A DNA stretch of 64,000 nt from Hyphomicrobiales bacterium (GTDB taxonomy: Bacteria; Pseudomonadota; Alphaproteobacteria; Parvibaculales; Parvibaculaceae), in the NCBI GenBank assembly GCA_016124805.1, contig WGND01000001.1, forward strand, positions 496,001-560,000, in the 5' to 3' direction. The translations under genes and the position numbers were made by a program. Under the pieces are notes generated by a model. The model did not search any database and was not told where the DNA came from. It saw only the letters and a list, made by a program, of their open reading frames with translations. Positions 11,807 through 21,611 of the stretch are shown piece by piece. Each line of letters begins with the position of its first letter. Position 1 is the first letter of the stretch.

Positions 11807-12013
11807 ATGACCGAGCGTCCTCGCAAGGCAACGCGGCTGACGGTGAGCCTGGAAGAGCAGGACTATCGGATGCTGAATGAGATTGCGGTCGCGCGTGACG
11901 CTTCCCTCTCGTGGGTGATCCGACAGGCGATCCGGCAATTCATCGAAAATACGCCCAAGGCCCAAGACAAGCAGAAAGCGCCACATGGCGGCCGGACGGG
12001 CGGCGACCGATGA
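11807..12013 (+). CDS. Ribbon-helix-helix (CopG-like) protein leading the defence operon
   Basis: A 68-residue basic protein. KATRLTVSLEEQDYRML is the DNA-contacting strand and first helix of an RHH fold, and LSWVIRQAIRQFI is the second helix, close to CopG/Arc repressors. The ATG at 11807 follows GGGGGG at 5 bases; ATG 11774 in the same frame is possible. Its TGA overlaps the helicase ATG (ATGA at 12010-12013), so the regulator is made together with the helicase. Likely an autorepressor that keeps a toxic restriction operon low after transfer. Confidence 0.8.
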   Translation: MTERPRKATRLTVSLEEQDYRMLNEIAVARDASLSWVIRQAIRQFIENTPKAQDKQKAPHGGRTGGDR

Positions 12014-14898
12014 ATGTCACTGCCTATCACGCTAGATACTACGCTCATGACCTGACTCGCCGAGCCTCCACCGGGTTGGATCGGCTTTCGATGTCGCTCT
12101 TCGACGCGGCTGTTGATCTGAACCCTCACCAGATCGAAGCGGCATTATTCGCGCTTGAATCTCCCCTTTCAAAAGGCGTCTTGCTGGCGGACGAAGTTGG
12201 CTTGGGCAAGACGATCGAGGCGGGAATTGTCCTATGCCAATTCTGGGCCGAGCGGAAACGACGCCTACTGGTCATCTGCCCGGCTTCGCTCAGGAAGCAA
12301 TGGGCTCTGGAGCTTTCCGAGAAGTTCAATCTTCCGTCCCGGGTCCTGGATGCGAAGACCTACCGGGATGAACTCCGGCTCGGCCGCGCGCCGCTGAACG
12401 AGACGGGCATTCTCATCGTCTCGTTCAACTATGCCAGCGCCTTGCGTGAAGAAATCAAAGCGATCGCGTGGGATCTGGTTGTCATCGACGAGGCCCACAA
12501 GCTTCGGAACGCCTATCGTCCGAGCAACAAGGTCGGTCAGGGCATCCGCTGGGCCACAGAAGATTGCCGGAAGTTGCTGTTGACGGCGACGCCGTTGCAG
12601 AACTCGCTCGTTGAGCTCTACGGGCTTTCGACGCTCATCGATGAGCATCTGTTCGGCGACATCAATGCGTTCAGGGCGCGCTATGCCAGCGCCGGAAGCA
12701 GCATGACCGACCTGCGACAACGGCTTGCGACCTTCTGTAAAAGGACGTTGCGCAATCAGGTCGTTGAATATGTTCGGTACACCGAACGGCGAGCCATTAC
12801 GCGTCCCTTTACATCGAGCGATGCCGAGCATTCGCTGTATGAGGCGGTTTCGGCCTTCTTGCAGCGCCCCAACAGCTACGCACTCCCTCAACGCCAGAGG
12901 CACCTTACCGCACTCATTCTGCGGAAGCTGTTGGCCTCGTCGTCACTCGCCATCGCCGGCACGCTCGATACGCTGCGAGCGAGATTGGAAACGCTGCGCG
13001 ACGATCAGATCAAAGACGATCCGGAATTAGCCGAGCGGCTTATTGAATCGGAAGACATCGAAGACGAGCTCCTTGACGACATCCTGGCAGATGACACTGA
13101 ACCGGAGTCGTCGGAAGCCAACGCGGCGCCGATCGACCGATCGAAGCTGAAAGAGGAAATCGAACTCTTGGAGCGCCTGAGTGCACGAGCGCGCGATATT
13201 CCTGTCGATACCAAAACCGAGACACTTCTAAAGGCGCTAGACATTGGTTTTGCGCAGATGGCTGAAACGGGCGCTGCGCGGAAAGCTGTCATCTTCACCG
13301 AGTCCCGCAGGACGCAGGACTATCTCAAGAGCTTTCTTGAGAGCCACGGCTACAAGGGTGAAGTCGTCGTTTTCAATGGGACCAACACCGGGCCTGAAGC
13401 GACGCAGATCTATGAAGCCTGGCTTGCAAAAAATAGACTGACCGGTCGTTCGTCAGGATCGCGCGGCATTGATGTTCGCGCTGCCTTGGTCGAGCATTTT
13501 AGGGATGATGCGACGATCCTGCTCGCGACCGAAGCCGCAGCGGAAGGCGTGAACCTTCAGTTCTGCTCGCTGGTCGTCAACTACGACTTGCCTTGGAACC
13601 CGCAGCGGATCGAACAGCGGATCGGCCGTTGCCATCGCTACGGGCAAAAGCACGACGTCGTCGTGATCAACTTCCTGAACGAGCGCAACGAAGCTGATCG
13701 ACGCGTCCTCGAATTGCTCGGCGAGAAGTTCAGCCTCTTCAACGGCGTTTTTGGCGCGTCCGATGATGTCCTCGGTAGCATCGAATCCGGTGTCGATTTT
13801 GAGAAGCGTATCCTCGCGATCTATCAGGAATGCCGAACGTCGGAGGAGATTGAGGCGGCATTCCGGAAACTCCAGGAGGAGATGGACGCGAGCATTCAAG
13901 CACGCATGGATGATACGCGGCGCAAGCTCTTCGAGCGCTTCGATGAGGATGTTCACCAGCGGCTACGAATTCGGCTTGCCGATGCCAAAGCCCAGCTCGA
14001 CCGGGTCGGCCAGCGTTTCTGGTCGTTGACACGGTTCGTTCTGGCGGATCGCGCCCGCTTTGACGATGAAGCGCTTGCGTTCGATCTCAAGGTCCCGCCG
14101 AGCCCGGAGATATCGCCGGGCCGCTACCACCTCATCTCGAAGTCACAGCCAGAGCCTGGCCATGACCGGAGCGAGGAACCGAGCCGTTTCCTGTATCGCC
14201 TGTCACATCCTCTCGGAGAGAAGGTTGTCCAGGGCGGAAAATCGCTCCCAGCGCCCGCGGCCGCCATCACATTCGATGTCACGAACCACGGCACGCGCGT
14301 TCATGTCGTCGAGGCTCTTCGCGGCAAGGCGGGGCACCTGATTCTGACGCGGTTGCAGATCGAGTCCTATGAGCGGGAGGAATATCTCCTCTTCTCCGGC
14401 TTTGACGATGATGGCACGACGCTGGATCAAGAGACCATGGAGAAGCTGTTCGGCTGCTCGGGCCACGTTGATGCGCCGACGGATATCCCGGACTCGGTAG
14501 CCAAACGGCTTGAAGCCGAAGCGCAGCGCTACGCCAAGGCAACGATCAGCCTCTCCCTTGAGCAGAACAGCGCCCATTTCAACCAGGCGCGCGACAAGCT
14601 TGAGAAGTGGGCGGACGACATGGTGCTTTCAGCCGAAAAGGCGCTGGCCGACACCAAGGAACAGATCAAGGTGCTGCGCCGCCAGGCGCGCCAGGCCGTT
14701 ACGCTTGAGGAGCAGCACTCTATCCAAGAGAAAATCCAAACGCTGGAACACCAGCAGCGCCGCCAGCGGCAGGAGATTTTCACGGTGGAAGACGAGATCA
14801 TGGAGAAGCGGGATTCGCTCATCGACCAGCTTGAGCGCCGGCTCGCGCAGCGGACCGAGACCGAAACCCTATTCACCATCCGTTGGCGGGTCGTTTGA
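12010..14898 (+). CDS. SNF2/RapA-type DEAH helicase of a putative defence operon
   Basis: A 962-residue superfamily 2 ATPase. Walker A is ADEVGLGKT (Lys67), the DEAH box is at residues 160-163 (VIDEAHKLRN), LLTATPLQN is motif III, and the second RecA-like lobe ends with EGVNLQF and EQRIGRCHRYGQ, as in RapA/HepA. After ~residue 620 there is a long charged region with coiled coils (residues ~830-940, KVLRRQARQAVTLEEQH). SNF2 proteins translocate on duplex DNA without unwinding. Position just ahead of a methyltransferase and a Res helicase-nuclease suggests it remodels or scans DNA for them. DISARM also has an SNF2 gene, but its other markers are missing here. Confidence 0.85.
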   Translation: MNVTAYHARYYAHDLTRRASTGLDRLSMSLFDAAVDLNPHQIEAALFALESPLSKGVLLADEVGLGKTIEAGIVLCQFWAERKRRLLVICPASLRKQWALELSEKFNLPSRVLDAKTYRDELRLGRAPLNETGILIVSFNYASALREEIKAIAWDLVVIDEAHKLRNAYRPSNKVGQGIRWATEDCRKLLLTATPLQNSLVELYGLSTLIDEHLFGDINAFRARYASAGSSMTDLRQRLATFCKRTLRNQVVEYVRYTERRAITRPFTSSDAEHSLYEAVSAFLQRPNSYALPQRQRHLTALILRKLLASSSLAIAGTLDTLRARLETLRDDQIKDDPELAERLIESEDIEDELLDDILADDTEPESSEANAAPIDRSKLKEEIELLERLSARARDIPVDTKTETLLKALDIGFAQMAETGAARKAVIFTESRRTQDYLKSFLESHGYKGEVVVFNGTNTGPEATQIYEAWLAKNRLTGRSSGSRGIDVRAALVEHFRDDATILLATEAAAEGVNLQFCSLVVNYDLPWNPQRIEQRIGRCHRYGQKHDVVVINFLNERNEADRRVLELLGEKFSLFNGVFGASDDVLGSIESGVDFEKRILAIYQECRTSEEIEAAFRKLQEEMDASIQARMDDTRRKLFERFDEDVHQRLRIRLADAKAQLDRVGQRFWSLTRFVLADRARFDDEALAFDLKVPPSPEISPGRYHLISKSQPEPGHDRSEEPSRFLYRLSHPLGEKVVQGGKSLPAPAAAITFDVTNHGTRVHVVEALRGKAGHLILTRLQIESYEREEYLLFSGFDDDGTTLDQETMEKLFGCSGHVDAPTDIPDSVAKRLEAEAQRYAKATISLSLEQNSAHFNQARDKLEKWADDMVLSAEKALADTKEQIKVLRRQARQAVTLEEQHSIQEKIQTLEHQQRRQRQEIFTVEDEIMEKRDSLIDQLERRLAQRTETETLFTIRWRVV

Positions 14899-21300: not shown

Positions 21301-21611
21301 TGTGGCTGATCGTCGGAGGACATCAGTACATTGCGTTCATCGATCCCAAGGGCATCCGCAATCTGGGATTCAACGATCCGAAAATCCAATTCTTCCAGAC
21401 CATCAAGGACATCGAACGCCGCCTTGCCGAGCCCTCCGTGACGCTCAGCAGCTTCATCATCTCAAACACGCCGTCACACGTGATGCGGCTCCTCTGGGCT
21501 GTCGAGAAACCGGCGATGGACTCGCGCAACATCCTCTTCCAGGATGAGGACAAGGCGATTTACGTTCGCGAAATGATGCAGCGGATTGCGACATCAGCGA
21601 GTTTGAACTGA
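18348..21611 (+). CDS. Res-like DEAD/DEAH helicase with C-terminal PD-(D/E)XK nuclease
   Basis: A 1087-residue restriction subunit. Walker A is SATGSGKT (Lys182), Walker B is DEGHRG at 280-285, and [10 protein letters not shown] follows as motif [16 protein letters not shown] is the motif VI arginine region. Near the C-terminus PDFILWL (Asp982) and FIDPKG (Asp999, Lys1001) make a PD-(D/E)XK nuclease site, as in type III Res. The enzyme should cleave foreign DNA after ATP-driven movement from unmodified sites. ATG 18348 overlaps the Mod stop; a GTG at 18345 is equally coupled. It ends the four-gene operon. Confidence 0.88.

What the first reader, a model, noticed from the sequence alone, without database searches (positions are those of the whole stretch)
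11807..21611. Four-gene RHH-SNF2-Mod-Res operon, a candidate defence system beyond plain type III restriction
Seen: start/stop overlaps at RHH-helicase and Mod-Res and a 39-base gap in between tie four genes into one unit. Known: Mod and Res suffice for type III restriction; SNF2 helicases occur in DISARM. Inference: a dedicated SNF2 translocase plus an RHH autoregulator make an extended type III-like system whose helicase may scan or remodel DNA before cleavage.
Basis: partly seen in the sequence, partly recalled or inferred. Interest (0 to 1): 0.75.

Follow-up and report, generated by a model that had tools for sequence, protein, structure and literature searches.

The report
Three-gene restriction system with helicase motor
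A bacterial DNA-cutting defence operon of the type III restriction kind carries an extra motor protein that most of its sampled relatives, from many phyla, also carry, so the motor looks like a real part of the machine and not a chance neighbour; what the motor does has not been tested.

Summary
The four genes are at the stated coordinates with the stated junctions. The conserved unit, however, is three genes, SNF2-Mod-Res. Of 72 large-Mod loci with enough upstream sequence, 59 have a full-length SNF2 gene, 2 a fragment, 11 none. In the reverse search, 18 of 19 assessable SNF2 genes are followed by Mod and Res. The SNF2 family pairs with three Mod/Res lineages and its tree tracks the partner, but many small-Mod type III systems lack it. 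The closest fetched relative is 87% identical in DNA from the SNF2 start to the Res end, yet has an unrelated Phd/YefM-like gene instead of RHH: the first gene is an exchangeable regulator slot. In several relatives Mod's methylase/target-recognition middle is replaced; in the clearest, SNF2 and Res stay 92-95% identical. The SNF2 model resembles RapA over its length; its core is nearest DrmD but below the DISARM cut-off, and no DISARM or BREX partner was found among the operon's proteins. I found no named system with this composition. Best reading: a three-subunit type III variant whose SNF2 motor moves along or clears DNA for Mod-Res. The partnership is well supported; the motor's action is inference.

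The parts
11741..11753 (.). candidate operator AAGTG-CAT-CACTT of the RHH regulator
   Evidence: AAGTGNNNCACTT occurs once in the 64-kb window, 0 in 100 shuffles; the same 13-mer, inverted, lies 23 bases upstream of the RHH gene in L150 and L151, two genomes of one genus. One further copy among the fetched loci lies inside the Mod gene of L015, probably chance. Binding not tested.
11756..11784 (+). promoter-like site TTGCAA-17-TATCAT (weak)
   Evidence: 9 of 12 matches; 2 sites found against 3.3 expected in the scanned region, so weak on its own.
11778..11808 (.). second inverted repeat over the -10-like site and the RHH start codon (weak)
   Evidence: the best 13-base arms of the region were reached by 9 of 1000 shuffles, the best 11-base arms by 91 of 1000.
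11807..12013 (+). RHH (CopG-type) regulator gene, 68 aa from ATG 11807
   Evidence: PF01402 35.5 bits; overlaps SNF2 by 4 bases. Replaced by an unrelated gene in close relatives.
12010..14898 (+). SNF2 / RapA-like dsDNA motor, 962 aa, motifs intact
   Evidence: Walker K67, DExH 160-163 and motif VI R537/R540 in 93 of 93 near-full-length relatives; model matches RapA (6bog_A) over 711 residues, Z 22.0, rmsd 11.1.
14938..18348 (+). Mod: type III beta-class N6-adenine methyltransferase, 1136 aa, with a long N-terminal extension
   Evidence: DPP(Y/F) and F-x-G-x-G conserved; model matches EcoP15I Mod 4zcf_B, Z 29.0, 469 aligned, rmsd 6.6.
16198..17637 (+). Mod residues 421-900: methylase core plus target recognition region, replaced in relatives
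   Evidence: Against L019 all 8 bins of 60 residues are 13-56% identical, the next bin (901-960) 71%, the other 10 bins 86-98%, with SNF2 95% and Res 92%.
18348..21611 (+). Res: SF2 helicase with C-terminal PD-(D/E)xK nuclease motif, 1087 aa (GTG at 18345 also possible)
   Evidence: GK, DExH, R595/R598 in 76 of 76; PD in 75 of 76, D/E1000 in 75 of 76, K1002 in 61 and H in 14.

Best explanation
This is a type III-like restriction-modification system with a third, dedicated subunit. Mod methylates and recognises the target site. Res is the SF2 ATPase with the PD-(D/E)xK nuclease. The SNF2 protein is an active-looking RapA-like double-stranded DNA motor that works with Mod-Res and does not itself read the site. 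A small DNA-binding gene upstream, here RHH, probably represses its own promoter and so times expression on entry into a new host. Most likely mechanism (inferred): type III Res spreads from its site by ATP-triggered one-dimensional sliding, and the SNF2 motor drives or clears that path by pushing off bound proteins, for example RNA polymerase or phage proteins, or remodels the Mod-Res complex, so that two complexes can meet and cut. Shown here: gene content, conserved active-site residues, strong linkage, co-divergence, replacement of Mod's middle. Inferred: complex formation, motor role, repression, phage restriction.
For: Linkage both ways: 59 of 72 large-Mod loci with at least 3 kb upstream carry full-length SNF2; 18 of 19 SNF2 genes found with the SNF2 profile, and with enough downstream sequence, have Mod and Res. 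Same SNF2 family with three PADLOC Mod/Res clusters. SNF2 tree follows partner type, 4 changes against a shuffled mean of 16.4, 0 of 200 shuffles as low. On the large-Res tree the rows without SNF2 need 7 changes, 6 forced by starred branches, and 5 of the 10 lie well inside SNF2-bearing groups, which fits repeated loss. The 87%-identical DNA in L013 begins at the SNF2 start and ends near the Res stop: the three genes travel as one block. Mod's middle is replaced with SNF2, Res and Mod ends nearly unchanged (L019): site choice lies in Mod, not in SNF2. All motor residues kept in 93 of 93 SNF2 proteins. RapA-like fold over nearly the full length.
Against: 11 of 72 large-Mod loci have no SNF2 and 2 only a fragment. 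Small-Res systems of the L012 kind mostly stand without it: of 36 of 398 genomes with such a Res, only 2 (G669, G682) have it beside SNF2 by position; 4 more have SNF2 or a piece of it on another contig. The P1 type III locus has mod and res without an SNF2 gene of this family, so SNF2 is not needed for type III cutting in general. One SNF2 gene (L132) sits with an AAA gene, DarT and a macro-domain gene and has no Mod-Res. Priestia L009 has a UvrD-PD-(D/E)XK protein in the slot. No experiment shows a complex, restriction or a role of the ATPase.
Confidence: 0.6

Rival explanations
1. Plain two-gene type III restriction plus an independent SNF2 gene that is only a frequent operon neighbour or a separate defence unit.
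For: 11 of 72 large-Mod loci and most L012-type small-Res loci lack SNF2 beside them; P1 has mod-res alone; SNF2 exists without Mod-Res in L132.
Against: 59 of 72 and 18 of 19 linkage, an SNF2 tree that tracks the partner, the three genes moving as one block, and SNF2-less rows scattered on the Res tree.
Confidence: 0.15
2. The SNF2 motor serves modification or self-protection: it opens occupied host sites for Mod or removes Res from unmethylated host DNA, so that loss would raise self-damage and not lower restriction.
For: RapA-like remodellers act on protein-DNA complexes (family knowledge; fold). SNF2 comes first of the three genes in nearly all mapped loci and is often within 60 bases of mod or overlaps it.
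Against: No direct evidence; two-gene type III systems protect themselves without it.
Confidence: 0.15
3. The SNF2 protein is a regulator of transcription, like RapA on RNA polymerase, for example delaying Res production after transfer.
For: RapA resemblance over nearly the whole length, Z 22.0; placed next to the regulator gene.
Against: The part of RapA before residue 122 has no counterpart; partner-specific divergence with Mod/Res fits a protein partner better than RNA polymerase.
Confidence: 0.07
4. A degenerate or divergent DISARM or BREX-related system.
For: Motor core nearest to DrmD: NF038318 675 bits, PADLOC DrmD 664 bits; BrxH 244, HmaA 197 bits.
Against: Below the DrmD_b cut-off of 950 bits; the profile is matched only to about position 651 of 868; 0 of 398 genomes pass the cut-off, and 19 of 398 match at 606-697 bits at places that coincide with this family's. 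No DrmB, DrmC, PglZ, BrxC or DUF499 match among the operon's proteins; the only DrmA match is the SNF2 motor's own weak one.
Confidence: 0.03

Closest known systems
Type III restriction-modification (EcoPI of phage P1, EcoP15I)
   Same: Mod with beta-class N6-adenine methylase and EcoP15I-like fold; Res with SF2 helicase and PD-(D/E)xK; mod-res order.
   Different: A dedicated SNF2 motor and a small DNA-binding gene upstream; Mod 1136 aa against 644 (4zcf_A); P1 has mod and res without this SNF2.
DISARM class 1 (DrmD)
   Same: SNF2 motor core homologous to DrmD_b (675 bits).
   Different: Below cut-off, no DrmB/C match; the C-terminal 300 residues lie outside the match.
RapA, the RNA polymerase-associated SNF2 ATPase
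   Same: Fold match over nearly the whole length, 711 residues, Z 22.0, rmsd 11.1; a long C-terminal helical hairpin followed by a final strand, as described for RapA and BrxHII in PMC12839542 (section 27).
   Different: No N-terminal domain in front of the motor; encoded with a restriction system.
Hma / DUF499-centred BREX-related systems and ARMADA type II
   Same: Three- or four-gene defence units that combine an N6-methylase with a RapA-like SNF2 helicase (passages and sections 27-28 of PMC12839542; passages of PMC12458937).
   Different: They use a DUF499 ATPase, or YprA and UvrD helicases with a PglX-like methylase; here a type III Mod and Res.

Membership tests
Type III restriction-modification (broad sense) | Mod: beta-class N6 methyltransferase with type III fold | tested here: met
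   PF01555 79.9 bits; DPP in 87 of 87, then F-x-G-x-G positions in 86 or 87 of 87; fold match to EcoP15I Mod Z 29.0 and Mbo45V Mod Z 26.6.
Type III restriction-modification (broad sense) | Res: SF2 ATPase with C-terminal PD-(D/E)xK nuclease | tested here: met
   PDLC03654 770 bits, ResIII 35 bits, motif counts (K1002 is H in 14 of 76, K in this window). By sequence only; no PDB sequence hit at E 0.01, fold not predicted.
Type III restriction-modification (broad sense) | Asymmetric site, one-strand methylation, ATP-dependent cutting at two inverted sites | not testable with these tools
   Needs methylome and purified proteins.
Canonical two-gene type III (EcoPI/EcoP15I) | mod and res only, no third conserved gene | tested here: not met
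   SNF2 in 59 of 72 relatives of this Mod; the P1 control region has no annotated SNF2 gene beside mod-res (it does have darB, a methylase-helicase gene, further upstream).
DISARM | DrmD above family cut-off | tested here: not met
   675 bits against 950; 0 of 398 genomes above cut-off.
DISARM | DrmA, DrmB (DUF1998) and DrmC beside it | tested here: not met
   Mod and Res match only MTase_III/II and REase_III models in PADLOC, no DUF1998 in Pfam.
BREX / Hma (DUF499-centred) | PglZ, BrxC or DUF499 ATPase in the operon | tested here: not met
   No such match among the four proteins (for SNF2 the best 25 of 47 PADLOC rows were shown).
RapA | N-terminal RNA polymerase-binding region plus SNF2 core plus C-terminal domains | tested here: not met
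   Motor begins at about residue 30; RapA aligns from residue 122 on only; 163 bits against the RapA cut-off of 576.

The most novel reading that the evidence does not exclude
A distinct class of three-subunit restriction enzyme: a RapA-like SNF2 translocase is an obligate subunit that turns the site-bound, passively sliding type III Mod-Res enzyme into a motor-driven or roadblock-clearing one. The motor goes with three Mod/Res lineages with few partner changes on its tree, while Mod exchanges its whole recognition-catalytic middle as a cassette.
Probability: 0.35. Interest if true: 0.75.

Novelty: new variant of a known kind. Interest (0 to 1): 0.55.

Why it matters
Type III enzymes are thought to reach each other by sliding without a translocating motor. 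A widespread lineage that carries a separate, active-looking dsDNA motor offers a direct test of why one would be needed, for example against DNA-bound proteins. Among the PADLOC 2023 models the best-scoring one for this motor is DrmD, so it may be logged as a DISARM part while Mod-Res is logged as plain type III. The natural replacements of Mod's middle give ready-made chimaeras for testing specificity with nearly constant SNF2 and Res.

Tried and rejected
DISARM and BREX/Hma membership: rejected by cut-offs and missing partners. A four-gene unit: rejected, because the regulator differs between 87%-identical operons. SNF2 as universal type III part: rejected, because L012-type small-Res genes mostly stand without it and P1 lacks it (the phage search was limited to E 1e-50). 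The second inverted repeat at 11778-11808 as operator: kept only as weak (9 of 1000 and 91 of 1000 shuffles). Promoter and terminator scans found no more than shuffles did. The first 150 or so residues of Mod had no listed match, which the tool says proves nothing. Paper searches for a named SNF2-Mod-Res system: eight. The nearest were a Cronobacter element that lists the genes together without naming a system (passage, PMC12757443) and a Bacteroidales methylase-SNF2 fusion protein MhgA (passages, PMC8102008). Passages only were also seen of PMC2292703, PMC10853773, PMC12707154 and PMC7251935. No paper was read whole; most papers of subscription journals are missing from the library, so absence in print is not shown.

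Counting choices. In one search, 8 of 80 loci were set aside for under 3 kb upstream of Mod (4 of these carry SNF2 pieces, L024, L036, L059, L084; 4 show none), and 2 of 72 have only an SNF2 fragment (L035, L064). 'Upstream' allows inserted genes between SNF2 and Mod. Reverse test: 29 SNF2 matches outside the own genome; 27 were fetched (2 contig-edge fragments, G568 and G586, were not). 3 of the 27 were short SNF2 pieces (L133 cut by a contig end; L154 and L155 inside a contig and without Mod-Res), and 5 had too little downstream sequence (L098, L138, L144, L146, L147; L138 and L144 show parts of Mod), leaving 19. One of these, L145, has SNF2 cut by the contig end and broken, and Mod in two pieces; two (L142, L152) come from one genome. 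The SNF2 profile A4 was itself built from plasmid loci partly found through Mod, so the two tests are not fully independent. The regulator tally covers 32 of the 56 small upstream ORFs, picked by eye as DNA-binding-like; 39 of 97 SNF2 genes had no such ORF and 2 had no upstream sequence. The insert tally covers 55 of 97 candidate ORFs, my choice. One search counts only proteins above a length and score limit, so broken copies are not in it. Both trees are 'quick' trees without bootstrap, with long-branch warnings, and counts of changes cannot tell gain from loss.
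Full report
OBSERVATION. RHH 11807-12013, SNF2 12010-14898, Mod 14938-18348 and Res to 21611 lie on the + strand, with a 4-base overlap, a 39-base gap and a 1- or 4-base overlap. Domain scans give RHH_1, SNF2-rel_dom plus Helicase_C, N6_N4_Mtase and ResIII; PADLOC gives DrmD, MTase_III and REase_III as best matches of the three large proteins; NCBIfam gives DISARM_DrmD_b at 675 bits, below its cut-off of 950.

IS THE SNF2 GENE A REAL PART? Two tests were run. (a) Loci were sought in bacterial and archaeal genomes with an alignment of the large Mod protein only (the best 80 kept). Of these, 72 have at least 3 kb upstream of Mod; 59 carry a full-length SNF2 gene of this family there, 2 a fragment, 11 none. 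Loci with SNF2 bear titles from Pseudomonadota, Planctomycetota, Acidobacteria, Chlorobiaceae, Spirochaetales, Nitrospira, Bacillota and the cyanobacterium Synechococcus. (b) SNF2 genes were sought with the SNF2 profile in 385 genomes of the class (7 with a match) and 398 of the phylum (23 with a match; the own genome counts in both). Of 19 SNF2 genes of at least 835 aa outside the own genome with enough downstream sequence, 18 are followed by Mod and Res on the same strand. The exception, L132, has an AAA gene, DarT and a macro-domain gene instead. One fetched plasmid, from Conchiformibius, has the order Mod-Res-SNF2. Within the window's own genus the system is rare: a long Mod match was found in 1 of the 24 other genomes searched (G394), where it too follows SNF2.

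CO-DIVERGENCE. The same SNF2 family goes with three PADLOC Mod/Res clusters: PDLC03646/PDLC03654 (large Mod, this window), PDLC03634/PDLC03647 (Cupriavidus L012) and PDLC03636/PDLC03648 (Salmonella L008). On a tree of 93 SNF2 proteins, 88 with a known partner, the partner type needs 4 changes against a shuffled mean of 16.4. On a tree of 78 large Res proteins the 10 rows without SNF2 need 7 changes, 6 of them forced by starred branches. Five of the 10 (L037, L080, L082, L085, L087) lie well inside groups that have SNF2, which reads best as loss; the other five sit at open forks or on long branches. In Priestia a UvrD helicase with a PD-(D/E)XK domain sits in the slot. Against a universal role: an L012-type Res was found in 36 of 398 genomes, and by comparing positions only G669 and G682 have it beside SNF2; G408, G458, G568 and G586 have SNF2 or a piece of it on another contig. 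Phage P1 has mod and res without an annotated SNF2 neighbour; its darB gene, annotated as methylase and helicase, lies upstream but did not match this SNF2 at E 1e-50.

THE UNIT IS THREE GENES. The closest fetched relative, L013, is 87% identical to the window over 9,583 bases that begin 8 bases before the SNF2 start and end 27 bases before the end of the Res stop; upstream no similarity was found. L013, L019, L023 and L042 have a similar Phd/YefM-like gene overlapping SNF2 by the same 4 bases (Pfam counts 4 PhdYeFM among the 32 scanned). Among those 32 small upstream proteins, Pfam found HTH_17 in 9, HTH_3 in 6, HTH_26 in 5, PhdYeFM in 4, RHH_5 in 4, RHH_1 in 3 and HTH_11 in 3, with overlaps. 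The slot is therefore filled by non-homologous DNA-binding proteins. For the RHH version a 13-base site, AAGTGCATCACTT, lies at 11741-11753; the pattern AAGTGNNNCACTT is found once in 64 kb and never in 100 shuffles, and its exact inverse lies 23 bases upstream of the RHH genes of L150 and L151, whose RHH proteins are 36% and 34% identical to this one. L150 and L151 come from one genus, so they count as one observation.

MOD SWAPS ITS MIDDLE. Against the window, L019 has SNF2 95% and Res 92% identical, and Mod residues 1-420 and 961-1136 in bins of 86-98%, but residues 421-840 only 13-41%, 841-900 56% and 901-960 71%. L045, L046, L051, L050 and L060 show the same pattern with lower flanks; L013 does not (Mod 92%, lowest bin 68% at 421-480), and L023 is intermediate. 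The replaced part holds the methylase motifs (DPPY at 496, F-x-G-x-G at 847) and everything between, where the target recognition region lies in this class of enzyme (family knowledge). So the site is chosen by Mod, and SNF2 and Res are kept. That this is replacement by recombination and not fast divergence is inference.

ACTIVE SITES AND FOLDS. Motor residues of SNF2 are kept in 93 of 93, DPP of Mod in 87 of 87, and the ATPase motifs of Res in 76 of 76; PD is kept in 75 of 76, followed by D or E in 75 and K in 61, H in 14. The Mod model (pLDDT 80) matches EcoP15I Mod (4zcf_B, Z 29.0, 469 aligned, rmsd 6.6) and Mbo45V Mod (7dsu_B, Z 26.6). The SNF2 model (pLDDT 79.5) matches SNF2 motors with Z up to 24.8 and matches RapA over nearly its whole length (6bog_A, 711 aligned, model residues 2-962, Z 22.0, rmsd 11.1; such an rmsd probably reflects domains in different relative positions). 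PMC12839542 (section 27) describes a RapA-like layout in the BREX helicase BrxHII.

ACCESSORY GENES. Between the core genes relatives often carry extra genes. Of 55 scanned, families include AAA_21, DUF4276, DUF1016/YhcG nuclease, AIPR, Fic, GmrSD_N, Schlafen AlbA, RhuM, Abi_2 and SIR2. The window has none: its operon is the bare core plus regulator.

MECHANISM. Type III enzymes are described as reaching each other by ATP-triggered long-range diffusion (title and start of abstract of PMC4490356; not read further). A separate dsDNA motor with intact motifs and a RapA layout suggests a machine that pushes proteins off DNA or moves Mod-Res along it. I put about 0.6 on a three-subunit enzyme in which SNF2 works with Mod-Res in restriction, and less on any single way of doing so. 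The modification-helper role, the regulator role and mere neighbourhood remain open; the experiments in the next-steps field separate them.

SURROUNDINGS. The operon is cargo at the left end of an integrated element. The chromosomal tRNA-Leu(CAA) gene is split: its 5' part, to the anticodon loop, is at 11257-11294, and a 3' part lies on another contig of the same genome (C17, within 109723-109805) next to a tyrosine integrase gene. In four relatives the gene is intact, and in three of them (L164, L165, L166) both flanks lie together on one contig. Because the two ends lie on different contigs, the extent of the element is not known. A second, complete tRNA-Leu(CAA), diverged from the native one, lies just inside the left end at 11451-11537. 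TrbI, a CagE/TrbE/VirB-type ATPase and a T4SS coupling protein lie at 24.5-37.3 kb.

NOVELTY. I did not find this combination named in PADLOC 2023, NCBIfam, Pfam or the papers searched. It is a new variant of the type III kind, not a member of DISARM or BREX.

Noticed in passing
window 11257-11294 and 11451-11537; G000 C17:109723-109805 (L168, L176): Native tRNA-Leu(CAA) is split in the anticodon loop (shared core CTCAAAA) by an integrative element that carries its own complete, diverged tRNA-Leu(CAA) just inside its left end and a tyrosine integrase at its right end.
   Followed up: partly
window 24501-37296, 38278-40812, 61119-62717, 62770-63942: Element cargo and transfer genes: TrbI, a CagE/TrbE/VirB-type ATPase, T4SS coupling protein, heavy-metal P-type ATPase, a pyridine nucleotide-disulphide oxidoreductase (mercuric-reductase-like by my reading), DUF3363 protein.
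   Followed up: partly
window 23177-24106; L009 15217-16182: An exonuclease-domain gene (RNase_T) lies downstream of the operon on the opposite strand; a gene annotated as exonuclease domain protein also lies beside the Priestia Mod-Res operon, again on the opposite strand.
   Followed up: no
L035 8154-9293: SNF2 shortened to 379 aa: start and C-terminal part joined in frame, motor core missing; could be a deletion or an assembly error.
   Followed up: no
L007 query positions 8092-8389 (inside Res): A 298-base piece of the Klebsiella Res gene region, annotated DUF1158, was the only match in the six further E. coli records listed; 155 of 5426 E. coli genomes have some match and only 2 at least 80% of the operon.
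   Followed up: no
L132 5997-13253: SNF2 gene of this family followed by an AAA gene, DarT toxin and macro-domain gene, no Mod-Res.
   Followed up: partly
L080 6921-10004, L085 6891-9869: Large-Mod operons without SNF2 have a TPR protein (L080) or a NACHT plus FGE-sulfatase protein (L085) directly upstream of Mod; L082 and L087 have genes of similar size and start there, not scanned.
   Followed up: no
MT839209.1 1654-3558: A 4.5-kb 'Bacteriophage sp.' faecal record encodes a 40% identical piece of this SNF2.
   Followed up: no
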